This document shows, piece after piece, positions 1 through 50,227 of a stretch of DNA of 64,000 bases. Within the stretch, counting starts at the first letter, position 1. The number at the start of each line of letters is the position of its first letter. Source of the stretch: Gamsiella multidivaricata (Eukaryota > Mortierellomycota > Mortierellomycetes > Mortierellales > Mortierellaceae); NCBI RefSeq assembly GCF_025024155.1, contig NW_026251713.1:558001-622000 (forward strand), in the 5' to 3' direction. The notes beneath the pieces are model-generated. The model did no database searches and had not been told where the DNA came from. It saw only the letters and a list, made by a program, of their open reading frames with translations. A program made the position numbers and the translations under genes.

Positions 1-1766
1 CTGCCCTTGCCCAAGACGATAGTGAACATCTCCTCGACAGCCTTTTGGTAGACGGCCACGATCTTCTCCTCGTCATAGTACTGCTTCGAAGGAAGCCCCA
101 GTCCGCTTTCGCTCAGCTTGAAGACGTTCATCTCGGGATCTTTGGGATCCGAGTCGACATCGAACTCCACCATGGTCGCAACGCCGAGCCATGCCAATTG
201 AGCGATCACCTGTGCCAACTCTTCTCTTTCTGCCCGGGCCAAATGTGCTGTTGCTCCTGCATCGTCACGCTTGCTGATTTCGTCGTTGTCCAGAAAAGTG
301 TCCACGCGTGAGGGGATATCCTGCTGCTCTGATACCTCATCAAGTGCGGAGCCGCGGTAGGATGACTGAATCTGGTCTTCGTTCTCCTCTTCCGCGTCCT
401 GCACTAATTGGATCCGCTGCACGTCTAAATTCCTGACCTTGGAGCTGGTGGTGATAGTCTTGGGGCGTGTGTTGACATTATTCAGGTTCTGAATCCTGCT
501 CTGGAAAGACTTCATGGGGGCGTTAGTATCGATGACACTAGAGGGGACAGGGAAGGCCTTGACCATCTTCTGAACCAGATCCGCCAGGGGTTTGACGCCA
601 ACCTCGGACATCTTTTTCTCATCCATGCAGCTCTCGTACAATGACTGAAGTTTGATCAGGTTGCGCTTCGAGGCATCGTCCTTGGTCCTCTGGACATTGT
701 TGATCTCTGGTGAAAGGATACCGCGAATAGTTTCCTAAAACAGGCATGACATTGAACCACCTTAGCTCCTATGCAATGCGTGGTCTAGGATCTCTGTCAT
801 GCTGGGAAACTGGCGAGGGAAGCACATACCTGATTTTGCTTTCTGACCAGGTTGAAGTATCCGATTTGAGCCTTGTCGTCTGGGATCGCCACCCGGTTTA
901 TAAATCCACCGCCTTGAAACGAGCCAATGTGACATGATAGACGCAAGCAGCTTCTCGTTAGCATCAACGCATTTCTTTCAAGCAATCGCAGAGGTTTACG
1001 TGGTGATGGGGAAATGGGGAAGTATAAACTTACAATTGAAGTCAAAAAAATCCGTGCAAGGGTCCACTCCAGGTTTCATGTCCCTCAGAATATCGGCAGC
1101 CACGATCGTACACTCTCGCGAGGTGCAAATTCCCTATACACAAACACATACACACACCACTACATGATCAGTAAAGACACACTCACGTATTTTTCACAAG
1201 GAAAAAAAGAAAGAAAGAAAAAGAAATGCTTGTGAATGGGCAGAGTCCAACTTTACATTCTTTCCAGTCTCGGGCAGGGCCTCTTTGGCACGCACATACG
1301 CGCACAAGAACCCAACCGCCAAGAAAAAGAACGCCACGGCCATAGCTATGGCGTATTTTTCAGTTCTCGAGTAGTTGTTCTTGAAATTGAACAGCGCCCG
1401 TCGACAGGGCAGACAGCAGCAACCACAGAGCAGTCGCTGTAATCCCGTCGGTCGATCCTGTCCCGAGAACCGCTGGGCGTCAAGATCCGAGGTATGATGG
1501 ATCGGTGGAGGAGGTCCTCTACGACGGTATCCAGCGCCGGTATTCTGGTGGCCGTAAGAGCTTGGGTCTGGGCCAGAGATGTCTTCAGTCTCTTCAGACC
1601 AGTGTCGCTGATTGTTGTTGTTGTTGCTATTGCTAGGAAGACCAGAGGTCAGGTTGCGATTACTGTAGGAGTTTGGGAAGGAGGAACCAACACTGTGGCT
1701 GCTGGGTATGGAGGCGCGCCGTGGATGGTGGCCACTGAGGAGAGGAGTTGTGTCTGTGGAAGACAT
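1..1766 (-). CDS. M13 (neprilysin/ECE-type) zinc metallopeptidase, 5' part; C-terminus beyond left edge
   Basis: Type II membrane endopeptidase of the M13 family. Exons read on the minus strand are 1766-1257, 1133-1034, 912-830 and 734-1, all joining in frame; about 475 codons lie in the window. The N-terminal ~135 residues are Ser/Pro/Asn-rich and cytoplasmic, followed by one hydrophobic segment (IAMAVAFFFLAVGFLCAYV). The luminal start shows the family's Cys spacing (CTSREC, then DPCTDFFDFNCGGF). The M13_N hallmark GLGLPSKQYY lies near the edge. The catalytic HExxH and its downstream zinc ligand should lie outside the window, so activity cannot be judged. An acidic, low-complexity insertion of about 90 residues falls between the two conserved N-terminal blocks. 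The start is the first ATG and gives a plausible cytoplasmic tail. Family assignment is strong; the substrate is unknown. Confidence 0.9.
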
Positions 1767-3416
1767 GGCTGGTTTGTGCTGTTAGGAGGACGTATTTGAA
1801 GTACGGAGTAAGGGCTGTAACGAATGTTGTTAGGAGAGTTGGGGTTGGGGCGAGGGTGTAGGGGGTGAGGTTCGTTTAATGGGGTGCTAATATTGGAATA
1901 TGGAATGAATGCAAGGAGGAAGGGAGTAAATTGCTCAGAAGCGTGTCCTGGCAAAAAGGCATCCAGATCTACGGAAAGAGCGTTGGGGAGTGAAAGGGAG
2001 AGAAGACGAGCGGGAGAAGCGCGAGGGTGAAGGGTGGAGAGTGGAGAACGGGCCTAGAAGGCGAAGTGTGGAGAGATGGGGAAGAGGAAGAAGAGGGAAA
2101 TGTGCCTGCTCAATTTTCATCCACGATGGTCCCCCCTACTCCATGGCGTGACTTGTCTTGTCCTGGCTTGGCTTCTTTGGCCCGGGTGCCAATGGATGGG
2201 GCATTGGTCTTGGCAGAGGTACCCATCCCAGTCAGGCCACTAGGGACGACGATCATTGTCGCTAAGTCTTGGAGGCGTCATGCCATGGTGCGTGATCTTT
2301 GAGCGAAGAGCGGACGAGAGCAAGGGATCATCATCCGATTTGGAATAGGTCCTAGCACTAACACGAACCATGTCTCTAGCGAGGTAGCCTTGCTGGTTCC
2401 CATTGAGGGACCACTAATTACGTCACCATCATCGTTTCACGGCGCATATTGATTGACTGACTGATGTGGCTCCTGAGCTGCTTTGTCTTTCTGGTAAATT
2501 CTTAGGGAGCGAATGTTGTAGGTCAAAGCTGTTCCCGTTGACGAAAAAGAGAGCTGGAAGCAGCGGCAGCGTACATCTTCCTTGTCCATTTCCATACACC
2601 GCTTTCGTTTCCAATGACGGTTTGTTTTGGTGGCAAAGAAGAAGATCCCTCCGTACGCGCGCGGATTTCCATTCACTAACATTCTTCATGCTTTGCCCAA
2701 CAGGAAACCAATGAACCCGAGAGCATGTTGTACTACAGCACTGCGGTGCGCCTGTCGGGGATCGAATCGCGCGTGCGAGGGGATTTTTATTTCTTTCCCG
2801 GCAAAAGGGGAACCAAACGCTGTGGACATGGAAGTCCTGAGCTGGTAAAAATGAACGTCCCCCACTGAACGCGTGCAACCGTGCATCTGCATGCTTCATT
2901 GTTTGTTGTTGTTGCTTCTGTAGTTGCTGGCTTTGCTGGCTTTGTTTGCTGTGGATGCTGCCCTTCGAGAAGGAAGGGTCAGCGCTTTTTCTTTGTGTGC
3001 ATGGCGCACAAGACCATCAAGACCATTTACGGCTGTTTTCCCAGCGCAGGACTGCTCCATTTGTCCTGTAATATCGATTTTGGACGCGAAAAATAGAAAG
3101 GAGTACCGCCAAAGTCATTAGACGACCTTCTCGTCTCTTGTGGTCTTTTGTTTGCCAGCTTTTCCCTCGTCTTCAATCTTGACTCACCAATTCCTTTTCT
3201 CGCCGACATTGTGCTCTCTAACTCGACTACTCACAAAACAACTAAAGATCGGGAGCTGATTGCGGAGACGTCATTCACATTCGCCTTGTCTTAGGGATTG
3301 TACACCTAGCCATTCGATTCCAACAATCCATTCCATTCCATTCGAGTACACTTGATACAACTCGACACAGCGACACAGCGACACAACTCGACATAGCTCG
3401 ATTTCAATTGGCCATA
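1767..3416. other. Divergent intergenic region between M13 peptidase and ZIP transporter
   Basis: No convincing gene. Open frames here (for example 2429-2899 on the minus strand) lack any recognisable family motif and have no consistent splice context. The last ~150 bp before the ZIP start contain short CGACAC/CATTC direct repeats (about 3320-3400), probably leader sequence. Confidence 0.5.
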
Positions 3417-5698
3417 ATGACAGCATTCAATGGCACTGACGACTATCGAGCATGGATGTACACTCTGGCCTCGACAATGGCGTGTGTCTTTGGGGGTAAG
3501 TCCACTGCTAACGATGGCTTGCCTTTTTTTATCATTTGATTCCGTGGTACGCTTTGCTTATCAGTTGGTCTTTTTTTTTTATCTACTTCCCCACTAGCCG
3601 GACTGATCTTCATCGACACGATTGTGAAAGCAGTTTCCGGACAGGACGTCCAAATACTACAGAACCACAAGTTCTTGGCAGGCTCCCTCGGACTAGGATC
3701 CGGGGTCATGGTAAGTCAGTAATATATGCAAACCTGCGTTCTTTATTTGTCACCAGGCTGCGGACAAGGAGGGAGCGAGGGGACGTGGGAACGGAGTCTC
3801 TTGATTTCTTGGAGGTGAAGTTAGTATTATGGAAAATGCAACATCAGCTGGACTCACTCGTAATTACATCAGTAACAAGGAAGGAAAGGGGGAGGGGGGT
3901 ACAAATTAATGAACAGTAGGGATTGTAGTGTCATTCGTACATACACGTGTCTGACCAAGAATCCTCTTCAAATAGATCTTCTCCAGTTTCTACAATCTAC
4001 TGCCAGAGGCAAAGGAGCAGTTATCGTCGGAACTGTCCATCTTCGCCAAACATGCGGATATGGTCTTGTTGCTGTTCTTCTTTGGAGGTGTTGGATTTAT
4101 GGCCCTTATCCACTGGATCATGCACCGCTTCGAGTCAAGACCCAATTCACCAGGGATTGAGAGCAGTGACGCAATCGAACAGTTCATGCAGCGCGAGGCC
4201 GGTCAACAGTCGCCCCCATCTTCCTTGCCTCAACACCGTCATGCCTACTCAAGGGCTAAAGCAGCAGTACCCAATGGAACGTATTCTGGCACCGGCAACA
4301 CATCCGCAGCTCCAGCATCGACTGCGCGTGTTTGCGAGGGTTGCGTTCAGGAGGAGAGCGACGAGGCAGACGAGGAAGTACGCTATGACGATTCAGAGTA
4401 CGTTGACGATGAGGTGGCGTCTCTGTTGAACAACGCATTCCTTCAAATCGGCAAGACTCCCAACAGCCGCATGGATGATGGCACACCACACATGGAGCGC
4501 CACCATAACAGGAACGGAGATCGAGATTATAAGGGGACCTGCGACGACGATGCAGAGAGCATAGAGGTCGTGATTGATGACCAAAAAGACAAGATCTTGC
4601 GACGTGCACCTCTGGATCATAGCGATCACGATCTAGACCTGGACTTTGATGATTTAGATATTCATGGGGGGCTACTGAAATCAAGCACGGACTCCTTGTC
4701 TTCGGCATCGACGCACTCCCAGAAACCGTTCGCGCCTGTCAATAAGAGAAGGAAGTCGGGCAATGCACACAAGGTCAAGGGACGCAAGCACGCAAAGGAC
4801 TGTCCCAAGGAATATTCATCAATGAACGGTAAAAACCACGCTGCCGAACATGCTGGCAAGTCACACCCTACACAGAATCATCATCATCAGCAGCAGCAAC
4901 CGCGCTCGGGTGGTATCAACACCATGTCGACATATGGTGCTGTTTCTCCACCAAACAATCGGCACTATTCTGGATCATTACCCTCGTTCCCTCGTCCTGA
5001 GCAAGGAGCACATCTTCGCCGTACTTCTTTCCCGCGGTTGAAGGGTGCGAGCACGATCTACTCAAAGCATGATGTCCTTGACCATGCTGGAGCTGACGAC
5101 CGCGAACACGCTGATTTGACAGAGGTTGGAATTCAGACTGCCCTCACTATCGCTATTCACAAGTTCCCAGGTATGATAAGATCTAGATCCTTTTTTGGTT
5201 GCGAGGCAATGAACCCATACTATGAACATGAACCTTAATGGTACCTTAATATTTTGCACGCGATTAGAGGGGTTGATTACATTTCTATCAACGACTGCAG
5301 ATCCCTGCCTGGGCTTCTCTGTGTTCATGGCGATCGCGGTTCACAATCTGATCGAGGGCTATTTGATTGCGTTCCCGCTCTACATCGGACTCCACTCTCG
5401 GACAAAGGCATTCGCCCTCGCCGCAGCCTTGGGTGGACTTTCACAACCATTGGGCGCAGTATTGGGCTGGTTTATTCTCCACAAGGTGGAGAGTATGGGG
5501 TGGCAGGTCTCAGCAACAGGATGTATTTATGCCATGGTGGCAGGCATGATGTCGTCCATCGCCGTCAACGGAATGTGGCCCCAGGCTATCAAGTGCGTAG
5601 GCAGGAGCAAAACCAAGGTCGTGCAGTATAGTTTCTTTGGAGGCATTGCTGCCATCGGCATCTGCCAGGCTGCCATGGGTACCAAGTGCGACCTCTAA
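3417..5698 (+). CDS. ZIP family zinc transporter (Zrt3-like)
   Basis: Predicted 605-aa divalent-metal transporter of the ZIP family. Exons are 3417-3495, 3598-3710, 3976-5170 and 5268-5698, each with GT-AG borders and matching phase. N-terminal membrane segments are followed by a cytoplasmic loop of roughly 300 residues, rich in His, Asp, Ser and Gln (aa ~150-440). The C-terminal bundle carries the two metal-site signatures HKFPEG (aa 459-464, split by the last intron) and HNLIEG (aa 488-493). Paired His/Glu motifs of this type form the binuclear transport site in ZIPs. The long loop and the motif forms resemble fungal Zrt3-type transporters, which export zinc from the vacuole to the cytosol; that location is inference. 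The gene ends 215 bp from the convergent Ppg1 gene. Confidence 0.92.
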
Positions 5699-5913
5699 GC
5701 CCCAGTGGTTAACTTTACATACTTTTTATCTTCGTTGTCGTTGTTTTTGTTGTTTTTGTTCGGTCGCCTTGTACTTTTATTTTGAAATTGTAAAATACAT
5801 CATTCACAGGAAAATTGTAAACTTGAAGAAAGGTATTGGATCTATTGTGCGCCATCTTATCATACATGAGTTTTTTTTCTTAGGATGTAAAGTTGGAGCA
5901 GCAACGTCCCAGC

Positions 5914-7931
5914 TCACAAAAAATAATGGATTGTATCCTATGGATAAAAATGACATGCAAAAGGGAAGCAGAGAGCAAGAGATGTTAGACGCCATTATCC
6001 CGTAAAGAAAAGAAGAAAAAAAAAAAAGAAAAGTTGCTCGAGGAATTGAACAGAACACACGACCATTACCTGAACTGGATCGGACGAGTTTGAGAAGCCC
6101 AGACCACCATTAGTGTTTACGCCTACTCCATCCCCGGTAGCGATGGTGCCGATCCCATTACTAAACAGGCCCGTCGGCACACCGTTCGAAAACAGGGTCC
6201 GGTGTGATTCTGCAGCGGATGGCCGCTCGTTTTCTGGTGCGGCCTCAAAGACATTAAAATGCCGCTCGCCCTCGACGCCGACCTCGAGGATCGAGGCGAG
6301 ATTGCCACAGCGGTAACAATAATTCGGTGCGGACCAAACGGTCGAGAGTCGGTCGTCAAAGAGAACTTGGAAACCTTCCATGCAGAGCTGGTGTGCGCGC
6401 AGAATATGGTCCATCCCGTTCTCGTGCAGGAATTTCTCGACCACCAAACTTCCGAATGTGTATCCTGCGCCTCTGTTTTTTTTTTTTTTTTTTTTTCGGT
6501 CGCGAAAAAAAAAAAAGAAACAAAATAAATAAAAGTAGATATTATGTCAGGAGCTGTTGCAAAATCGTTGCAATGTCTTTTTTTCGCCGTAATACTGGGG
6601 TCCGATAAAAAGCACGGGGTTGGATATTGTTTTTGCGAGGAGGGGTTACCTCGGTGAGACTGCAAATTCTTCTCGTCCTGGATCCGGGTCAGACCACACG
6701 AGATCCGCCATGGGACCTTCATGCGGGATTTCTACAACCACAACCACAACCACAACCACAACCACAACCACAAGGAGAGCGTTAGGAGACTGCAAAAACC
6801 CTCAAGGTTCATATTTCGGCATAGTCCAAATTAATTTCAGTTCAACAAAGAGACAACCCCCACCTTTGAAGCGATCCATAACTTTGATCTGGTCTATTGT
6901 GTGGATGGATGGCGACAACCCTATGAGCGAAAAATAAAATATAATAAAACATCATCAAAGTATCTGTTAAATTAATTTTGTCCGCAAGCAGTTTCTGCCA
7001 TGTTTTTCATTTTTTTTTTTTTTTTTTTTCGTATCGGTCCATTAGCATTTTGCTTCTTCAATCGAATCGCGTACCCCCATGGACGCAAAAAATCATGTTG
7101 TCGATGACGACCGAGAGTGTGAGGTAGTCAAAGAGATCTGTAAAGTAGTGCCACACCTGCGCACTGCCGTATTTCTTCATGCACTCTGTGTAGAATCCAT
7201 ATGTCTATCAAAGAGTGCCATTGCAAAAGACGATCATCCCATGTTCAGTCATTTGCAAAAATATAAAATCGTATCAATATCAAATAGTTGAAAGTTTAAG
7301 GGGACATCCAAGTGCAGCCCCTACCTGAGTCACCGCACGCGATTCGTGGTTGCCGCGGACGAGTTGGACTCTGTCTGGGTAGCGCAGCTTAAGACATGTC
7401 AGGATAGAGATGGTTTCCACGCTGTACAGTCCTCGATCCACATAGTCGCCTATATATATATATATAAAGTAGTTAGGTAGGATTAGTCGGAGTCTCCATG
7501 AAAAGAATCATTGGCATGATCGCCAGAAAACAAAAGGTATCCCATACCGAGAAAGAGATAGTTCGTATCGGGGCAGTATCCACCTATTTTGAATATCTCG
7601 AGTAGATCGTAGAACTGCCTAGATGTTGCACAAAGAGGACATTCAGCTTGGATTCACTTCCGTTCACATGGATAACAAAGCATCTCTTCATGCCCCCCCC
7701 CCTTGCTTTGCTCGAGTCTATGATCACCACGTGGTGCGCCCCCTCCCCCCGGTCCCCCTTGTCTTACCCATGGATATCGCCCACGACCGTGACTGGCGCC
7801 TTGATATGGACGACATTGCTCTCAGACATGAGAAGTTCTTTTGTCTTTTCACAGATCTCCTTGATCACGGACTCGGCCAGGAGTTGCCGTTGGAAGAGGG
7901 ATTCTATGCATGCGTCAAGGTCCAGCACCAT
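5914..7931 (-). CDS. PPG1: Ppg1-type PP2A-like serine/threonine protein phosphatase catalytic subunit
   Basis: Predicted 351-aa metallophosphatase. Exons on the minus strand are 7931-7768, 7618-7548, 7449-7325, 7204-7075, 6920-6864, 6731-6650, 6472-6070 and 5937-5914. All phases agree. Metal-site motifs are complete: GDIHG (aa 51-55), GDYVDRG and RGNHES, plus the [11 protein letters not shown] block. PP2A, PP4 and PP6 paralogues were considered. The match to yeast Ppg1 is best, through the VVGDIHG...[19 protein letters not shown] context, the [10 protein letters not shown] block and an extended Gly/Asn/Ser-rich tail before the C-terminus. The final 24-nt exon encodes seven residues ending in YFL, the conserved carboxyl tail of PP2A-like enzymes. 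In yeast Ppg1 works with STRIPAK/Far-like complexes and influences glycogen storage. Confidence 0.93.
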
Positions 7932-30481: not shown

Positions 30482-32168
30482 TTACTCCTCATCGCTATCC
30501 TCATCGCTGTCCTCCTCATCAGCCTCCGCCAGCCACTTAAGAAAAGGCTCGACGCGGGTGCGAACGTCCTTGGCCTCCTCACGGCTGACATACTTCTTAC
30601 TGGGCTTCTCGCCCCACTTCAGAATGACGTCCTCGTCGAGGATGTCGTTGTCGTAGAACGCCTTCAAGACCAAAGGAGCCTTGAGCATCAAGCTCTTGGA
30701 GGTGATCAAGACGCGCTCCATGCCTCCGAGCAAAGCTCTCTGGTTTTTCTCATTGACAACAAACTATATCATAAAAGATTTCAATGTCAATACGAGAAAA
30801 CGAAACATAGCGAGAGTGGTATGGCATTTGATCAACATCAGATCAAGCCGAGGTAAAAAAAAAAGAAAAGTAAAAACATACCTTGCGCAAGAGAGAAGTG
30901 CGAGTCTTGACCTCGCGAGCCATGTCATCAGTAAAGATGCATTGAACCAAGACAGTGACAGCGCGCGACTTGGTGGTGATGTTGAGCTCGCCAGCCTTCT
31001 CCAAGATCTCAGCGTCCGTAGCCTTAGGGTTCTCTTCCAAGAAGATACCGAACAACTCATAGGGGTTCTCACCTTCGATGTCCTCATCATCATCATCCAA
31101 GGTGAGCTGGGTCTTGACGCTGCCCTCCAACTCCTTCATGCGGGCAGCAGCACCCTCAGCGGAGGTGTCGACGGACCAGTCATCGCCCAAAGCCGACTTG
31201 TAGTTATCAGCATCAGGGATAGCAGCAGCCTCCTCCTTGATCTTCTTGGTGAAATCATCATCCGGAATCTCCTCCTCCTCTTCAGGTGGGGTCGAGGCGC
31301 CGTTCTTCTTGCTCTTCTTGTCCGCCTTGTCCCCCTTGCTCTTCTTTCCGTAGGCGCTGTTGACAGGAGGGTTCTTGACGATGTATGTTGCCAATTTATG
31401 GATGTTCTCGCCCTTGTTGCGACGGCCGCAGGCATTACAGTACATCTGGATGGTGCCGGTCTTGTCCACGATGATGTCCGTCTCGGGGTTGCCACACGAA
31501 GGGCAGAGAACAAACTTTGAGATAAAGCCGTTCAGAAGCTGCTGAAGCTTGGTGGCATCATGGGCGCCATTGACGATGTAGCGGTCAGTCTTTTCGTCGC
31601 ACTTGACCTGCGCACCAAGTTCACATCCAAAATACTTGGTGGGATCTGGTCCAGGGATCGCCATAAAAGGAATAATCGTAGAAGAGGCACATGTTAGCAT
31701 TTACGACATCAAAATATAGGCCCAAAGGGAGGGGAAATAAATCCCAGGGACTGATTCTATTCTTTGTATGTGATTCTTGGCAGAGGGCCCTTGACTTACA
31801 GGTACTGGGGCGGTTGAGTGCACGAGCAATGTCCGACATGTTAGGGATGACGGTCTTGATTCCGTTTCCTTTGCCTTCGATCTACAAGATCCGGCGGGAA
31901 AACAATATTGCGGTTTCATAAGGAGGATTAGTAAACAGGCCGATTGAACCGCAGTAAAATATACGAAATGATCCGTCCTCTTCTCATTCGTCATATTATA
32001 CCGATCGGATGCTTCTCCGTGAAAAAAAAGAAGCGATCCTTCAAAAGGGGCAGATGCAGACATAAAGACAAAGCAGCCCTTGTTCAGCCATACCTTTGAG
32101 ATCAACTTGGGCATCTTGTAGCGGTAAAAAGCATCGTCGCTTTGACCGCCGATGTTGAGATTAGCCAT
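30482..32168 (-). CDS. TIF5: Translation initiation factor eIF5
   Basis: Predicted 400-aa GTPase-activating factor for eIF2 in start-codon selection. Minus-strand exons are 32168-32094, 31881-31800, 31645-30882 and 30763-30482. The N-terminal domain includes the arginine of FYRYKMP (Arg16), equivalent to the GAP arginine finger, and [19 protein letters not shown]4 zinc finger follows (CPSCGNP...CNACGRR). A Lys- and acid-rich linker precedes the W2/HEAT-type C-terminal domain, which binds eIF1, eIF2beta and eIF3. The protein ends in an acidic Asp/Ser/Glu tail. The gene converges on the SET/MYND gene with 299 bp between stops. Confidence 0.97.
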
Positions 32169-32984: not shown

Positions 32985-33059
32985 GAGACAGGAAGGTTGC
33001 ATTTTATGCACCTATAAAGTGCAATGTCGGTGGATAGGTCGTTCTTACTGAATTAAATT
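32169..33059. other. Intergenic region upstream of eIF5, left of the repeat-flanked block
   Basis: Presumed eIF5 promoter, then AT-richer sequence with an A-run of about 26 at 32956-32981. No gene recognised. Confidence 0.45.
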
Positions 33060-33196
33060 CAGAACTCGGTACGGATTAAACTCGACAATCAAGGGCAACC
33101 TGCCCTGGCATTAAGCTGATGGCGCGAGCCGCTTCAAAAGTGTAGGACTATTTACAGACTTCTGAGATTCTATCGACAGCGAGCTACAAGTTAGCA
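33060..33196. repeat. Left copy of 137-bp direct repeat
   Basis: Matches 37897-38033 in the same orientation over 137 bp with three mismatches and no gaps. It begins CAGAACTCGGTACGGAT and ends AAGTTAGCA. Neither copy overlaps a recognised gene. The pair brackets the unusual 4.7-kb block. Confidence 0.9.
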
Positions 33197-33480
33197 TAGA
33201 TGGCTCGAGGAACAATGGCGCAAGTCCTCCATTGCCAAAACATTGTCCCCTGGCCTATATGCCCTGTGTCCACTAAGACGCCCTGCTCTGGCTGCTGAAG
33301 ACTGGTGGTGCATGCTCTGTCATGGTTTTCTGTATCCTTGCTTTGTATAAAAGCGGTATCACTGATACCAGTCAGATAGAGAAGATTGGTCAAATATATA
33401 GAAAAAAGCTGTCTCCAGTTCCAATCCATCCAAAGAGAACATTCTTGTTGGAATCCCAGTGTCAGGGTGCATGAGGTGCT

Positions 33481-35347
33481 TTATTTCGCTGAGCTAAGGG
33501 CGCCTCGGGCTGACGGTGTGGTGATAGTGGGGTAGAACGACTTCCTGCGCTCGTAGTCAATCTGGCCAGCATCCACCGCACGCTCAATAGATGCCGACGT
33601 CTTTTTAGCAATCTCCCTGAGCTGTAGCCAGAATGGTAGATCTTGCGATAAGAATAGCAGATCATTGACAGAGCAAGGGATCCGTCCTGTGCCGATCTCC
33701 AGCATTGCATAGATATCCTGGACTTTTTCAAGAACAAATGCTTGCAACACTAGTCCATTAATGTTGAAGAGAAGCAGCGGCACCTCCAGATCCACGAGGT
33801 TGTTTATCATATCATGGCCGTTCTTGCCAAAGACCCCCAACCTTATGGTATCTCCACCATACTTGAATGTGCTCTTTGCTGCAACGCTACTAGCCTCACC
33901 GAAGAAAGTCTCGACCTTGACTCCCTCATAAGTAAAGATGCCAACCATGTCTGGCTGTTTTGATTTACCTTGCAACTGGTTAATGGCTTTGTTGTACCGC
34001 GAGGCTTCTGAGCCTTTGTCGGCGCTATTTGTTGAATGCCAGATATACAGTGAGCAAGTGCTTAACAGAAGCATAGAATGCAGCCAGTTATGGGCCTCTT
34101 ACCATGAAAACCTAACCAAGTCCACTTCTTGCAGGAAAGCTGCCAACAAGTTTCGGATGAAGGAGGCAATGCCATCTGCCTCTTGGAAGTCCAATGGCTG
34201 TGATGCAAACAGTCCCTGGATACACATCACAAAATAAGTGTGCATTGCAGCAAGATCCAGGTCCTTCGCCTCTTTCCAATCACTGTGCAGCTGATCCAGT
34301 GTATCCATTCGCTTGGCCATGTTCTCTCTCCTATTTTCAGAAACAAGGCAAACCCATCTAACCCATTTGGATATGAGCGCCTGTTGCTTGTCTAGCAGGG
34401 TGGTATCCAGGGTGGGTACAATCGACTTGAGGAGCGTTTCTCTCAAGGCTGTCAATCGTTGGCCACCAAATGCCTTGAGTAGTCGTGGGGAGCGAGAGTT
34501 CTTTTTTATCAATAGGGTTGCAGACAATGCACTAGTGATTGTGTATGAGTGATAGTCAGGTTCTATAGCAGGCTCGCTATTTTCAATAAACAATGTCAGC
34601 AACTTACAGCGCATCCTCAGGGTATCCATGCTTGTAAGACTCGAGGCAACAGGCTTCGAAGTACTGAGTGAAGAGGGCGCCCATGTCAACATCCTCCAAG
34701 ACGCAGGAGAATATATGTTCCCGCTTGAGACCCAGTAATTCCCCCATTCGCTGATGAGGTAACATTTCTTGTAGCGCATCAATGATATCGCCAGGCATCA
34801 GAACTTCCCAGGACGACTCGCTGCCTCCTGCAAAGGCCTCACGGGGACGCTTATTAGGGAATGGAGGCGTGTATGGTGGAGAGGGCTCATCCTTGGTAAT
34901 AAATGGCGATATTTTGTCATCCATGAACTTCTTGAACCGATGGTGCTGGAACTCAAATACAATATCCTGCTCATTGCTGTTGACGTTCTCGATTTTCTGG
35001 GACCATTCCTCCTGTTGAAAGCAAGGAGAGTCAGCAGGACGAGCAGCATATGCTTTTTGAAAATGTGCCTCAAAAACAAACTGTACCATTTTCTTAGCTG
35101 CTTCTTCTTTTCGACGCAGTTTCTCCCAATATTCTCTCCTCCTGTCTTTGGAGTTTGCCCACCTAGTTTCCAGCACAATTGCCTTCTCTGCATCAAGGCC
35201 GCGGACCGTAGTTTTCCACACTGCGCCTGCATGTCCTTCATTCCAAGAAGGATAACCAGCCCATTCAAAAAACTTCACGGGGTCCTGGTCTTCTTCCGCC
35301 GATCCATTCAAGAATGCCAAGAGTTTGTTCTCGCGCTTGCTGTCCAT
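33481..35347 (-). CDS. Unrecognised 570-aa protein within the repeat-flanked block, possible PD-(D/E)XK-like C-terminal domain
   Basis: Three minus-strand exons, 35347-34608, 34531-34103 and 34024-33481, join in frame to give 570 aa. The function is not recognised. The N-terminal ~110 residues include a charged helical stretch rich in Lys/Arg/Glu with Trp-containing blocks (FFEWAGYPSW). The middle is helical. The C-terminal part has Pro414-Asp415, then GEASS with Glu433, then RLGVFGKNGHDMIN. That spacing resembles a PD-(D/E)XK nuclease fold with the catalytic Lys position occupied by Ser435. Similar large families of such proteins occur in Mucoromycota genomes to my knowledge, but I cannot search. 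The intact frame contrasts with its broken neighbour. An effector- or nuclease-like role is speculative. Confidence 0.6.
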
Positions 35348-35605
35348 TGCGACTTTGTTGATGTTGATGAAGTCGTGGCGTGTGTGTGTCTTGCTGATTC
35401 CAGGACAATGGGCGCGAGCTTGGGACGCGAAATCCAAGTCACAATAACAAAAGAGCGCGACAACGCAATTTGTCCTTCCTCCTCCATCCTTTATCCTCCC
35501 CATTACATTTTCACAATCCTCAATCCTTCTTCTCCAAACCCAAAGAATATTCACAGGTACGTCGCGCTCTTGTGCCTCCTACCCTTTTCTCTTCCCCTGG
35601 TGTGA

Positions 35606-35866
35606 GAATGTGCCATGACAGCATCCATTCCATGGCATAGATGGTCATGTTCATGAGTGGGTGTAGTAAGGATAGTGCAGCCCGGACACGTCTTAAGCTG
35701 CTAGTCTTTGTCTCTCTGGACCTGGGTCTTAAGCAACTCTTTACAATCTATACGTGGTGCGTGAGAGTTGTGACTCAGTCAGTCGTCTTCATGTTTCTCC
35801 TGGTTGACCATTGGAGGATGTGGAGACGATGATGTTGCCCAAGAGCAGAGGCGTATGCGACTTACT
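35606..35866. repeat. Tandem duplication, copy 1 (280-bp period)
   Basis: Nearly identical to 35886-36146 at an offset of 280 bp, with only a few substitutions and about 20 bp between copies. An identical 63-codon plus-strand open frame occurs in both copies (35641-35832 and 35921-36112) but is probably non-coding. The pair sits between two divergently oriented genes. Confidence 0.9.
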
Positions 35867-35885
35867 TTGGCTATTTTCTTAACAG

Positions 35886-36146
35886 GAATGCATTGCGACA
35901 GCCTCCATTCCATGGCATAGATGGTCATGTTTATGAGTGGGTGTAGTAAGGATAGTGCAGCCCGGACACGTCTTAAGCTGCTAGTCTTTGTCTCTCTGGA
36001 CCTGGGTCTTAAGCAACTCTTTACAATCTATACGTGGTGCGTGAGAGTTGTGACTCAGTCAGTCGTCTTCATGTTTCTCCTGGTTGACCATTGGAGGATG
36101 TGGAGACGATGATGTTGCCCAAGAGCAGAGGCGTATGCGACTTATT
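35886..36146. repeat. Tandem duplication, copy 2 (280-bp period)
   Basis: Second copy of the unit at 35606-35866. It lies about 180 bp upstream of the primase-helicase relic, so it may represent duplicated promoter sequence. Confidence 0.9.
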
Positions 36147-36326
36147 TCAATGCATTTCTGGCCATGAGAGGAGGGGTGATGGTATTTGTCTTGCTCCTCT
36201 TTTGACGAGCCATGTCTAATTAACCAACCCTCTCTGTTTGACTGGCACCACTGGTACCATCTTTATGCCAAGTTGCAAAATCATGGATAGAAAATTGAAG
36301 CGAGGTATACTAGCATAGAAAACATC

Positions 36327-37888
36327 ATGGAAGGCTTCGCGAAGACGTTTGTCGATCTGGACTTTGTGCCTATTGGCATCTACTTGCGGTGGGACCAACA
36401 GACCAACAAGAAGAAGATTGTATTCAAGCCAATGTGGGAGCGAACTACGCTGGGCACGTTCAAGGACTATTTTAATATGGAGGACAATGGCATTGCATTG
36501 GCGACAGGCGAGACCAGCGATTTGATAGCAGTTGATTGTGATGTCCCAAAAGACAATGGTCGATCTAATAGTATTGAGGATGGCCTGGGTGCCTTTGAGG
36601 ACATATCAAGAAACACGGACTCCCTGAGAACACGCCCATCCAGCAGAGTGCAAGCGGAGGGACGCACTACTTCTTCAACAGTGCTAGGAACTGCACAAAA
36701 TTACGAATAAATAACGCGCCTATGAGCATTGACGCACGTGGAGATGGCGGATGCATCATTGTTGGTCCTAGCTATGTTGACCAGAAAAAATGCAGCTTTA
36801 TCAAACCATTTGTGGAGCAAGCAAAGATGCCAGCCATACCAGAATGGTGTATGATGGTCTTTGCCAACAGATAGCTGGCCTTTCCTTGGAGCCCAATAAG
36901 GAGCATCGTGTCTCAGTATTCCTGAGCAACGTTAAGTCAGCCATCGAGTCGATGCTTGGCACAGAGATTGCCAAACGATGGGTCTGCACCAATGGCTTTG
37001 ACTTCAAGCCGTGCTCCATTGCGGAGTGTGCGCTATGTGGCAGGACGCACGAGTCGAACGACTACCTGGTCCGCCAGGTAACGCTTCATGTGCTTCAATG
37101 GCCATATCTGGCAGGAGGTCAGTAAACGCCGTGTGCTGAGCGACATTGCAGGTACTTGCAGAACCACCCTTGAAACTCTGCTCAAACACGTCCATCCACC
37201 GCTGGACACTGACAAAGACCAGATCATGGTCATCAAAAGACACCGCAGCCAACTCGCCAAAGGTGTGGCATATGTCCAGAAGGACACGAACATCAAGATC
37301 ATCTTGTTGTTCTACCGCACACTCTACATTGACGAGGCCATCGAGTCGCGTCTTGACCAGAATCCTAATGCCTTGACCGTCAAGAATGGGGCCATCGGTC
37401 TGCAGACCGGTTGAGTTACGCAATGGGTTACCCTCGGACTACATGTCGCGCCAGCTGGATGTAGAATACAAGGGCCTGGGTGCTAAAGCAGACATCATTG
37501 ATGAATTTATTGCAGACCTATTTAACCACGACATGAACCTGCAGCGCTTTCTAGGATACGGTATCACTGGTTGCACAGATTCGCAGGTGTGGACCATGTT
37601 TACAGGCGAAGGCTCCAACGGTAAGTCGCTGTTGGCTAGTCTTTTAGAGTCATTGTTAGAGGCAGCCAGCGTACACGTGTGGGCTCGCATTCCACGTACT
37701 TGGGTACCTTGAAGAATGCTCGCATCTGTGTCAAGGAAAAAGCAGATCCTAAGGAGAAACTGAATACCGAAATGCTCAAGATGGCGTTTTGCCTTGAGGG
37801 GAAGGTCTTCGATTTACAAATAGGCATTGTCGAACTTTTCCCCAAAAAGGGAGCTAAACATTTCTCTAAATCGGACAGTCTAGATTAA
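36327..37888 (+). pseudogene. Degenerate D5-like DNA primase-helicase
   Basis: Similarity to prim-pol/D5-type replication proteins of plasmids and large DNA viruses is spread across several reading frames, so the gene is broken. The first segment (36327-36710) carries the AEP primase-type ALATGETSDLIAVDCD with its Asp-x-Asp. A later frame shows a Ser-Gly-Gly-Thr-His motif. Another contains a Cys-x-x-Cys with an Arg-Thr-His-Glu-Ser block. The segment 37386-37712 holds the superfamily 3-like Walker A GEGSNGKS. Frames change at roughly 36640, 36860, 37080, 37410 and 37670, and stops interrupt each frame. No helicase segment recognisable to me extends to the usual C-terminus. It lies inside the repeat-flanked block, divergent from the 570-aa gene. 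The origin (viral, plasmid or transposon) is not decided by sequence alone. Confidence 0.75.
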
Positions 37889-37896
37889 CGCACATG

Positions 37897-38033
37897 CAGA
37901 ACTCGGTACGGATCAAACTCGACAATCAAGGGCAACCTGCCCTGGCATTAAGCTGATGGCGCGAGCCGCTTCAAAAGTGTAGGACTATTTACAGACTTCT
38001 GAGATTCTATCGACAGCGAACTTCAAGTTAGCA
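37897..38033. repeat. Right copy of 137-bp direct repeat
   Basis: Same-orientation copy of 33060-33196 with three substitutions. It starts nine bases after the stop of the last recognisable primase-helicase segment. Confidence 0.9.
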
Positions 38034-38913
38034 GAGTATGGCCACTTTTAGAAGAAGGAAAGATTGGCGCTTGACATGTCAAATGGGATCGCCTGCACTG
38101 CATCCCCTTCCCCCGAGCTGAGCGTCATTCTGAATTGACGTTGACTGTGCTAGCTGTTCCATCCTTATGGAGTGCCATAGTAGACAAGAGCTTTCATTTT
38201 GCGAAGGCAACAGCACAAGCGCATTCTCATGCCAGATCTTCTCTCGATCAATTGACAACGGTCTTTGCAGGACTATAGACGAGGCACGACTCAATGTATG
38301 GGTGTGAAGAAAAGGTAGCTCCAATTAGGAAGTGGCAGTGCGACTAATCTTTCTTGTTTTTTCCGCAGCGCCGTCAAAAAGTCGACATGCAGAAGGTGCG
38401 TGCGCGGGAACAGAAGTAGAAGCGCGTCATGAGGAGAGTGTAAACAAATCAATAAAGTGAATGAGAGTGATCGCGACAGATTCCACCAGCGTTGCTGAAA
38501 ACTAGCCTGGAGCTTAAAGCATGCCTCGGTAAACAAGATATTGGAATGAGGGAGAACCACATGGCTCCAATACACTCCTTTCAATAAGAATATGCTCTCT
38601 GATGTGGCAGTGCATATTTTAGGTCGCGCCGCTCCTCGAAACTAAACTTTGTTTTCTAGGGTCGATGCCATGTTTTCAGGGGGCATTTGCCTCTGATTGG
38701 AGGAGCAGTGGTGGCGGAGACTAAAGCGCGATGGAGAGATGGAGAGTCAAAGAGTATGAGACCCGTCTATATCCACGGCCCATGGATATAAATCTCCTCG
38801 ACGATCCACTTTTCTTTTCTTCTCTTACAAAGCTCATTACCGTCCTATACCCTCCTCATCACACTTCTCATCCCTCCTGCACTCCACACCCTATTCCTTC
38901 ATCTCACATCAGC
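38034..38913. other. Intergenic region right of the element
   Basis: No gene recognised. A TATAAAT at 38787-38793 and a CT-rich leader precede the cysteine-rich protein gene. Confidence 0.45.
38787..38793 (+). promoter_or_regulatory. TATA-like element of cysteine-rich protein gene
   Basis: TATAAAT about 127 bp upstream of the ATG at 38914, followed by a CT-rich leader. Confidence 0.5.
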
Positions 38914-40065
38914 ATGCGCTCTTTCGCAACAGTCGCGTCCTTCGTTGCCGTGGCCGCGTTCGGTCTTCTGGCCCCAACTGTCACTGCTCAGGAATACGTC
39001 GAACCCTATTCAAAGTCAGGCTCAGCCGGAGGATTTAAGGATTCGCTCAACTCACTCAGCTCCCTTGGTGTCGGACCATACCCTTCCTTATCTACCTCCA
39101 CTGGTCTCGGAGGCGGTCTCCCACCAATGTCAGTAGGCGCTACTGAGGATCTTGGAAGACTCCAGAAGAGACAGTCCTGCAGCCCTGGCTACGGTAGCTG
39201 CGGGTAAGTTTAGACAGCCAGGCACCGCCTGGGAGCTTTTTTCTCATTCGCTGGGTCCTGTAGATCCGGTCTTCTAACCAGCCTTTCAATTTGATCTAAA
39301 CACAATACATAGTAACGGCTACTGCTGCCCTGTCGGTGAGTTGTGCTTCAACTCGGTGAAGGGGTGCTGTCCGAAGAACCTTCCCTGGATGTGCGGTAAA
39401 CAGTACTGCTGCCCTGTAAGTCTTTCCCTCGCTCTTTCTGCATCCCGAATGCTCAAGCGTTCGAAATGCAGCGCTAACTCCCGTTACTGCTTCGATCTAT
39501 AGTACAACTCTTGCCTCTCGAACGGCCACTGCGGCTGCAATAACGGTGCCTTCAGATGTGGAAACAGCTGTTGCAAGTACGGATGCAACTCAAGTGGGGA
39601 CTGTGGATGCCCCTCTAGCTATCCCGTGGACTGCGGCAGTAAGTATATCTTTTACGCGAACAGCTGCTCTACCTATTGAATTTCCTTACTTACATAAAAT
39701 TCCTTCATGTAAAAAAAATAGGTGAATACTGCTGCCCTGCCGGTTCCGTCTGCGTGACTGGCGGCAAGTGCCTAGCCGGCGGCAGTGGCGGCGGCGGCTA
39801 CAGCAGCGGGCCAGAGCCATACCCTACTTTAACTCTGAACCCAACCTCCGGTTCATTTCTAACTCCAACCTCATCTATCACGCCAACCTCACCTCCTTTG
39901 GTCCCAGTCCCCATTCCAGGCGGCTCCAACTCTACTACCACTACATCCAGTTCGTCAAAGCCGACAATGTCCGTCCTTCCTAGCGACGCTGGCTCAAGCA
40001 AAGATGCTTCAAAATCTACCGCCATCATCATTGCCGTTGCTGTTGCGGCTGCTTTGATGAACTAA
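38914..40065 (+). CDS. Secreted cysteine-rich, probably GPI-anchored surface protein
   Basis: Predicted 290-aa secretory protein. Exons are 38914-39203, 39313-39415, 39503-39638 and 39722-40065. A signal peptide (aa 1-23, ending VTAQ) is followed by a Ser/Gly-rich pro-region with a KRQ dibasic site just before the first Cys. The Cys-rich core (aa ~93-210) contains repeated YCCP/CCP/CGC units reminiscent of granulin-like or chitin-binding-like folds. A Ser/Thr/Pro-rich stalk comes next, and the C-terminus is hydrophobic (STAIIIAVAVAAALMN) as in GPI signals. Nearly every exon break falls between Cys modules. I do not recognise a named family. A cell-wall or surface role is inferred from architecture. 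Confidence 0.82.
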
Positions 40066-49070: not shown

Positions 49071-50227
49071 ATGGCGCCCCCAAAGAAGGAAAAGATGCCG
49101 AGCATGAAGGAGCTGCAGGACCTCCTTGCCGCGCTGGACGCCGAGGGCGGCCTCTCCATCGGAGGAGGCGAAGAAGGTATATATCGGATACACCTTTTTT
49201 TTTGCAATGGGGCGACTGATTATTGCACAGAAGTTAACCAAGTAAACGCGCGCGTTCGCTCTTATTTCCCACGGTAGACTCCACGAACCTAGACGATCTC
49301 TATGAGGACTCGTACTTCCACGCGATCCTCCACAACACCGTCACCCAGGACACTCTCACCCTCGAGCCCACCACCACCGCCCCACCAACAACGACCTCGC
49401 CGTCTGACCATGATCAGGGTCAGGAACGCTCTCAGCAGACCTCAGCACCATCGTTCCAAGTCCTCACCCTCCCTCCGGAACGCTCCTGGGGTGACGATCA
49501 CGAATCCCTCGGCCCAAGGCTCCTGATCCGCCCCGGATATGCTGTCGTCCTCTCTGCACTTGAACAACAACCTTGCCAATCCCAATCCATCTTCATGGCC
49601 ACCGCATCTCCAGGGATGGGTAAATCCTGTCTAGCCTACTATCTTGTCCATAAGCTCTTCCAAACCGGACACGACGTCGTCATCAGCGACCCCATGTTCA
49701 CGAACGCCTTTATCAACAGGGAGTACTATTCGTCTTACTCGCCTCACCTGGAGAAACACTCCATCATCTCAAAAGCCATCTCGACACCGTCGTCTTCGGA
49801 AGGTACTACAAAGCCTCTGTGGTGGGTCTGCGACGATGGCTTCCTACCGATCAAGGGCACCCGATGCAATGTCCTCATCACCTCCGCGACTACACAATCC
49901 GCCAAGGACTCTGAGACTGTCACCAAGAAGAACAAGTTGGTCACGCCGATCCAGTTCCAGATCCCAAAGTGGTCTCTGGACGAGATCAAGGCTGGCATGA
50001 TCGTTTCCCTGTCGACTTTAGATGCAGGAATGGGGTTGACGGATTTCAAAATCACAAAGGAGCAAGAACCCGTACTGGAAGGACTCTTTCAAAAGTTCAA
50101 GGGGAATCCTCGAAAGATCTTTTCATGGGTCAAATCCAATTGGGTCGTGGCCGAGGAGACCAGTGCAGCTAGCGGACCAAACTCTGGGAAGCGCAAGGCT
50201 AAGTCCAGCAAAGCAAAGAAGATGTGA
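49071..50227 (+). CDS. P-loop ATPase-like protein, unrecognised subfamily
   Basis: Predicted 351 aa from exons 49071-49176 and 49278-50227. The N-terminus is Lys/Met-rich and mildly helical, followed by a Thr/Pro/Ser-rich stretch. The nucleotide-binding core starts with the Walker A ASPGMGKSCLAYYLVHKL (aa ~140-157). Further on is WWVCDDGF, a candidate Walker B. The C-terminus is basic with a nuclear-localisation-like KRKAKSSKAKK. The SPGxGKS followed by a Leu/Tyr-rich helix resembles ATPase modules found in Crinkler- and RHS-type proteins of fungi and oomycetes. That link is by memory of the motif, not by search. It diverges from NAT (309 bp) and converges on the J-domain gene (214 bp). Confidence 0.7.

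What the first reader, a model, noticed from the sequence alone, without database searches (positions are those of the whole stretch)
33060..38033. Repeat-bounded block with a broken primase-helicase and an intact unknown gene
Two same-orientation 137-bp repeats with only three differences enclose 4.7 kb that looks unlike the rest of the window: a replication-type gene in ruins, an intact unknown gene, and a tandem duplication. Seen: the repeats, frames and motifs. Known: D5-like primase-helicases belong to large DNA viruses, plasmids and some self-replicating elements. Inferred: the block is a decayed mobile or endogenous viral element, perhaps inserted or excised through the repeats.
Basis: partly seen in the sequence, partly recalled or inferred. 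Interest (0 to 1): 0.75.

Follow-up and report, generated by a model that had tools for sequence, protein, structure and literature searches.

The report
Relocated fungal gene beside virus-type primase relic
In a soil fungus, a conserved fungal gene of unknown function sits beside the ruins of a virus- or plasmid-type DNA replication gene, framed by a short duplicated sequence that looks like a scar of insertion or repair rather than the ends of a mobile element.

Summary
Two direct repeats (33057-33199, 37894-38036; inner 137 bp with 3 differences, 143 bp with 5) enclose 4.7 kb with an intact gene, a tandem duplication and a broken primase-helicase. The genome is Gamsiella multidivaricata (Mortierellaceae).

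The broken gene is a Prim-Pol/D5-type primase-helicase relic (Prim-Pol above Pfam's cut-off): five frame changes, cut off at 37787. At least three more fragments of the family lie elsewhere in the genome (C30, C134, C93).

The intact gene looks like a fungal gene: four exons (545 aa, identical to the public model), homologues in 15 proteins from other Mortierellaceae names, a diverged paralogue on C101. In Mortierella sp. AD011 its homologue is fused in annotation to the start of the same Prim-Pol protein: linked in two species, in different arrangements.

The repeats are unlikely to be ends of an element family: none other was found in the genome, and the right one abuts the end of a dispersed MITE-like family. 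In four informative relatives, locus tags or contigs place the intact gene away from eIF5.

Best reading: a gene-plus-relic segment was moved here and the repeat is a junction duplication. The move is inferred; no empty site could be examined.

The parts
33057..33199 (+). left copy of the 143-bp direct repeat
33481..34024 (-). intact unknown gene, exon 4 (with stop)
   Evidence: matches P0001
34103..34531 (-). intact unknown gene, exon 3
34608..35011 (-). intact unknown gene, exon 2
35087..35347 (-). intact unknown gene, exon 1 (ATG at 35347)
35475..36161 (.). upstream region shared at 82% with C43:5597-6274, tandem duplication included
35617..35867 (+). tandem duplication, copy 1 (251 nt)
35897..36147 (+). 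tandem duplication, copy 2 (3 of 251 differ)
36327..36614 (+). relic piece 1: N-terminal half of Prim-Pol
36599..36871 (+). relic piece 2: C-terminal half of Prim-Pol, PF09250 25.9 bits (cut-off 22.8); overlaps piece 1 in another frame
36790..37086 (+). relic piece 3: linker region between primase and D5_N
   Evidence: 59% to C134 over 27 aa
37085..37411 (+). relic piece 4: D5_N-like, 19.2 bits (cut-off 22.4)
37386..37712 (+). relic piece 5: start of SF3 helicase with GEGSNGKS (Walker A type, motif recalled)
37688..37786 (+). relic piece 6: next helicase stretch, 74% to C30 over 31 aa; relic ends here
37788..37893 (+). end fragment of a MITE-like family with long terminal inverted repeats
37894..38036 (+). 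right copy of the 143-bp direct repeat
30482..32168 (-). left host neighbour: eIF5
38914..40065 (+). right host neighbour: spliced secreted cysteine-rich protein (my reading of the sequence; no Pfam match for its first exon)

Best explanation
Shown: the segment joins (a) an intact, spliced gene of a family found in Mortierellaceae, (b) its duplicated upstream region, (c) a dead fragment of a Prim-Pol/D5 primase-helicase, one of at least four such fragments in this genome, and (d) an end fragment of a dispersed MITE-like family, and is bracketed by a 143-bp direct repeat found only at this site. Inferred: replication genes of a virus- or plasmid-like element entered Mortierellaceae DNA and decayed. 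One copy lay next to the unknown gene, as in Mortierella sp. AD011. The gene-plus-relic segment was later pasted into the eIF5 interval during repair of a chromosome break, or by replication template switching, which duplicated about 143 bp of flank. The repeat is therefore a junction duplication, not element ends, and the block has no joint function today beyond that of the intact gene.
Confidence: 0.5

Rival explanations
1. The unknown gene and the Prim-Pol/D5 gene form one mobile or viral unit of Mortierellaceae: the replication gene drives copying, the spliced gene is cargo, and the block is a decayed integrated copy.
For: The two genes are linked in Gamsiella (divergent) and in Mortierella sp. 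AD011 (same strand, fused in annotation as P0005). The gene is not next to eIF5 in four informative relatives.
Against: The other three relics in this genome show no copy of the gene in the 7-19 kb read around them (profile search). None of the 82 fetched viral loci encodes it. Its introns and diverged paralogue suit a host gene. Arrangement differs between the two species.
Confidence: 0.18
2. Gene and relic are long-standing residents; the 143-bp repeat is a later local duplication by replication slippage or template switching, and the fragment of MITE-like DNA a separate insertion.
For: Repeat copies differ at only 5 of 143 sites, whereas the relic's pieces are about 40-80% identical in protein to the other relics and to AD011, so the repeat may be much younger. 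A second local duplication (251 nt, 3 differences) shows that such events happen here.
Against: The repeat falls exactly at the right edge, where the MITE-like end stops, and the gene is not beside eIF5 in informative relatives.
Confidence: 0.22
3. One reading: the repeats are the terminal direct repeats of an element or virus that was inserted or excised through them.
For: Same orientation, high identity, replication gene inside.
Against: Repeat not found elsewhere in the 37.5 Mb held, so the other relics lack it; the right repeat is adjoined by an unrelated MITE-like end; the content includes a gene of a fungal family.
Confidence: 0.06

Closest known systems
Prim-Pol/D5 (SF3) primase-helicases of phages, plasmids and large eukaryotic DNA viruses
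   Same: Prim-Pol domain, D5_N-like region, GEGSNGKS motif in the order of these proteins
   Different: Broken in five places and cut off. With the C30 copy, the listed phage records match at 27-33% (20 of 767 listed) and the 80 kept IMG/VR contigs at 27-35%; the window's own short helicase piece matches two IMG/VR contigs at 40% over 59 and 50% over 40 residues and one plasmid at 38%
NCLDV-type insertions in fungi (Allomyces D5, Rhizophagus and Gonapodya DNA polymerase; PMC5294986 and PMC9894930, passages seen)
   Same: A virus-type replication gene in the genome of an early-diverging fungus
   Different: Here single-gene fragments without other core viral genes in the block; affinity to NCLDV not tested
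Mortierella verticillata MVEG_12362, listed as a GenBank hit (28% over 285 aa, 1e-28) of a virophage primase-helicase (PMC4722103, table passage seen)
   Same: A Mortierella protein similar to part of a primase-helicase, so such genes in the group have been listed before
   Different: Could not be compared with the window's relic; its sequence was not obtained
Gene movement by break repair with filler DNA (search listing and abstract starts only)
   Same: A gene-bearing segment in a new place with duplicated flank
   Different: Donor and empty site not seen here

Membership tests
Prim-Pol/D5 primase-helicase | Prim-Pol domain (PF09250) above curated cut-off | tested here: met
   25.9 bits against 22.8 for window:36599-36871; the N-terminal piece alone 22.0, just under
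Prim-Pol/D5 primase-helicase | D5_N domain (PF08706) | tested here: inconclusive
   19.0-19.4 bits against 22.4 in the window; the C30 copy reaches 29.1
Prim-Pol/D5 primase-helicase | SF3 helicase domain | tested here: met
   PHROG DNA primase 3.7e-14 on the piece with GEGSNGKS; only the first part of the domain is present, and PF19263 rings in the genome only at C30
Prim-Pol/D5 primase-helicase | Continuous reading frame | tested here: not met
   Five frame changes and internal stops; ends at 37787. It is a relic of the family, not a working member
Endogenous NCLDV or Polinton-like virus | Other hallmark genes beside it (capsid, packaging ATPase, DNA polymerase) | tested here: not met
   None by Pfam among the 10 ORFs of at least 100 aa inside the block; 7 of the 10 were also scanned with PHROGs. 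Flanks include eIF5 and a chitinase. The genome at large was not searched for capsid genes
Endogenous NCLDV or Polinton-like virus | Tree position inside the virus clade | not tested
   Pieces are short and no eukaryotic virus sequence was knowingly fetched for comparison
Element with terminal direct repeats (LTR-like) | The same repeat at the ends of other copies | tested here: not met
   Two copies found in the genome, both at this locus
MITE-like family (37788-37893) | Dispersed copies with inverted terminal repeats | tested here: met
   Copies at C152, C170, C90, C115, C2, C37 and others; arms of 241-312 nt, 75-98% alike within each of three copies. The window holds only one end
Mortierellaceae unknown-gene family | Homology to the family's proteins | tested here: met
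   17 proteins at E<=0.001 among the 7,995 candidates scored (a capped list), two of them Gamsiella; 16 of 17 below 1e-130

The most novel reading that the evidence does not exclude
Mortierellaceae carry, or carried, a family of self-replicating DNA elements built on a Prim-Pol/D5 replicase that picks up fungal spliced genes (this unknown gene here and in AD011, Crinkler-type genes at C30 and C134) and moves them, so that virus-like replicons have shuffled host genes in these fungi.
Probability: 0.12. Interest if true: 0.65.

Novelty: new member of a known kind. Interest (0 to 1): 0.35.

Why it matters
It adds Gamsiella, with at least four fragments, to the thin record of virus- or plasmid-type replication genes in early-diverging fungi, and shows one of them linked to the same conserved fungal gene in two species. 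If the linkage reflects joint travel, an element family may be waiting to be found in Mortierellaceae genomes that are already public.

Tried and rejected
Considered and rejected. Repeats as a dispersed satellite: only two copies found in the genome. Repeats as LTRs: no other copies found. Foreign composition: GC is ordinary. Frame breaks as sequencing errors: five in 1.46 kb beside an intact 1.9-kb gene. A three-exon 597-aa model of the intact gene (one search had started one base off): replaced by the four-exon model that equals the public protein.

Led nowhere. Viral-contig scans with the C30 piece, Prim-Pol alignment A3 and Prim-Pol piece 2 gave no relatives. The D5 piece gave 2 loci and alignment A4 gave 222, of which 80 were kept. 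I did not classify those contigs; GC of the 82 fetched loci is 0.60-0.70, so they do not settle the source. The protein search with the Prim-Pol tail of P0005 returned only P0005 (28 candidates). For the unknown gene, no convincing solved structure (best E 0.23) and no Pfam match better than E 0.021 among 16 members. For the helicase piece the solved structures gave only chance-level matches (best E 0.026); plasmids gave one weak match. Crinkler loci C114, C2, C172 and C112: 0 of 4 have a Prim-Pol/D5 piece in the 6.5 kb read, so the Crinkler link at C30 and C134 may be one duplicated segment (1,604 bp at 92.8%). The long frame at C79 (E 0.04) is a kelch-like host protein by eye, a chance match. 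Paper searches: Gamsiella with transposable elements, none; Mortierella with giant or endogenous viruses, none, two (the virophage and Polinton-like virus papers cited here), and none of the 15 listed papers held the word Mortierellomycotina. That is no proof of absence from print.
Full report
What was checked. The genome is held as G000 (37.5 Mb, 180 contigs). The window's intact gene is identical to a public Gamsiella multidivaricata protein on a contig of the same length, 736,129 bases, which names the organism (Mortierellaceae).

The repeats. The genome search found two copies of the 143-bp repeat, both here. Similarity fades out within about 15 bp beyond the right ends and stops at the left ends (alignment). 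The left copy is preceded by unremarkable sequence. The right copy follows the end of a MITE-like element (below). Nothing at 33200, the inner side of the left copy, was found to resemble that element's other end.

The MITE-like end. Window 37788-37893 matches, at 84-87%, the ends of elements at C152, C170 and C90, in both orientations, the two matches of one element starting 647-712 bp apart. The C152 element is 841 bp with arms of 312 nt at 98%. A genome search with it listed 62 matches (both orientations of one copy counted apart; 40 of 43 candidates scored); many of them share only the inner 150 bp. The element's end, GACGCAGG followed by TTAATG or CTAATG at C152 and C90 (C170 differs), corresponds to TAACGCACATG in the window, directly before the repeat.

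The relic. Six pieces on the plus strand between 36327 and 37787 read, in order, as Prim-Pol (two pieces), a linker, D5_N and the start of an SF3 helicase (two pieces), in frames 0,2,1,2,0,2. Pfam: PF09250 25.9 bits over a cut-off of 22.8; D5_N 19.0-19.4 bits, under its cut-off of 22.4. PHROGs: DNA primase 3.7e-14. Related fragments lie at C30 (end of D5_N and helicase), C134 (Prim-Pol with stops, and linker) and C93 (D5_N, 59% over 54 aa). They cover different, partly overlapping parts. No whole copy was found by these searches, which are lower bounds.

The intact gene. Four exons, 545 aa, three introns of 75-78 nt. Of 17 proteins found at E<=0.001 among the 7,995 candidates scored, two are Gamsiella and 15 carry other Mortierellaceae names (family of these names recalled), at 52-84% identity over the aligned part. 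The Linnemannia elongata entry P0017 looks like a chimeric model and was left out of the alignment. No Pfam match in 16 members is better than E 0.021. A diverged paralogue on C101 matches three parts of the profile in three separate frames, with breaks near profile positions 227 and 367, close to two of the gene's own exon borders.

Linkage in a second species. P0005 (Mortierella sp. AD011, 627 aa) is the unknown protein followed by about 80 residues that match relic piece 1 at 68% over 73 aa. So in AD011 the Prim-Pol start lies downstream on the same strand, while in Gamsiella the two are divergent. This is one gene model on a 5.3-kb contig; the entry also shows a second locus tag, BGX20_003671.

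Place in the genome. In the second Gamsiella assembly the eIF5 and unknown-gene tags are consecutive (BGZ54_007206, 007207), on a 23,062-base contig. Of six relatives that could be compared, tags are far apart in five (BG011, BGZ51, BGX26, EDD11, BGZ83), and in Lobosporangium, which shows no such tags, the two lie on contigs of different length; contig lengths differ in all six. In BG011 and BGX26 the gene's contig is only 3.5 and 5.0 kb, so I count four of six as informative (one search lists 120 of 1,005 hits). The remaining relatives could not be paired.

Upstream region. 35475-36161, which holds the tandem duplication and lies upstream of both genes, is 82% identical to C43:5597-6274, duplication included. 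The two C43 copies are 88% alike and the two window copies 99%. The duplication therefore seems older than the split of the two loci, and the window copies have since been made alike or re-duplicated. Neither the intact gene nor the relic matched the 10 kb of C43 read (best E 0.05; none).

Source of the relic. With the C30 helicase piece, 767 of 50,697 phage records match, all below 60% identity, the 20 listed at 27-33%. Alignment A4 finds 222 viral contigs; the 80 kept match at 27-35%. The window's short helicase piece matches two IMG/VR contigs at 40-50% over 40-59 residues. These searches cannot say whether the source was a giant virus, a Polinton-like virus, a plasmid, a phage-like replicon or something else. 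Papers: NCLDV-type genes are reported in Allomyces, Rhizophagus and Gonapodya (PMC5294986, passages; repeated in PMC9894930, passages). A table in PMC4722103 lists Mortierella verticillata MVEG_12362 as a hit of a virophage primase-helicase (passage). PMC4642659 includes M. verticillata in a tree of protein-primed polymerases (passage). PMC11071308 (passages) does not name Mortierella.

Conclusion. The relic's identity is secure (about 0.95). That the intact gene belongs to a fungal family is well supported. That the block was moved here and the repeat is a junction scar is the best of several readings (about 0.5).

Noticed in passing
L027 (C30:70000-79069) 1429-4567 and L028 (C134:170000-179000) 2488-4874: Two of the other relics sit beside members of one Crinkler gene family (PF20147 80.4 and 54.1 bits), sharing 1,604 bp at 92.8%, in convergent orientation to the relic; at C134 Crinkler and Prim-Pol are both cut short near each other.
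   Followed up: partly
L022 (C43:1-10000) 5597-6274: A stretch with the same tandem duplication as the window's 35475-36161, upstream of a minus-strand set of unknown ORFs; a DDE_Tnp_4 transposase lies 1.2 kb away.
   Followed up: partly
window 35617-36147: The two tandem copies are 99% alike although the duplication seems older than the split from C43, where copies are 88% alike: a possible sign of homogenisation.
   Followed up: no
window 49595-50227 (+): ORF of 210 aa with SPGMGKS, weak matches to STAND/NTPase models (E 0.01 and worse); looks like a fragment of an NTPase of the Crinkler/RHS sort (recalled).
   Followed up: no
C101 near 232.9-234.3 kb (L007): Diverged paralogue of the unknown gene in separate exon-like pieces.
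   Followed up: partly
G000:C93:350145-350288: Fourth D5 fragment, 59% over 54 aa, with one stop in frame and no Crinkler or unknown gene within the 7 kb read.
   Followed up: partly
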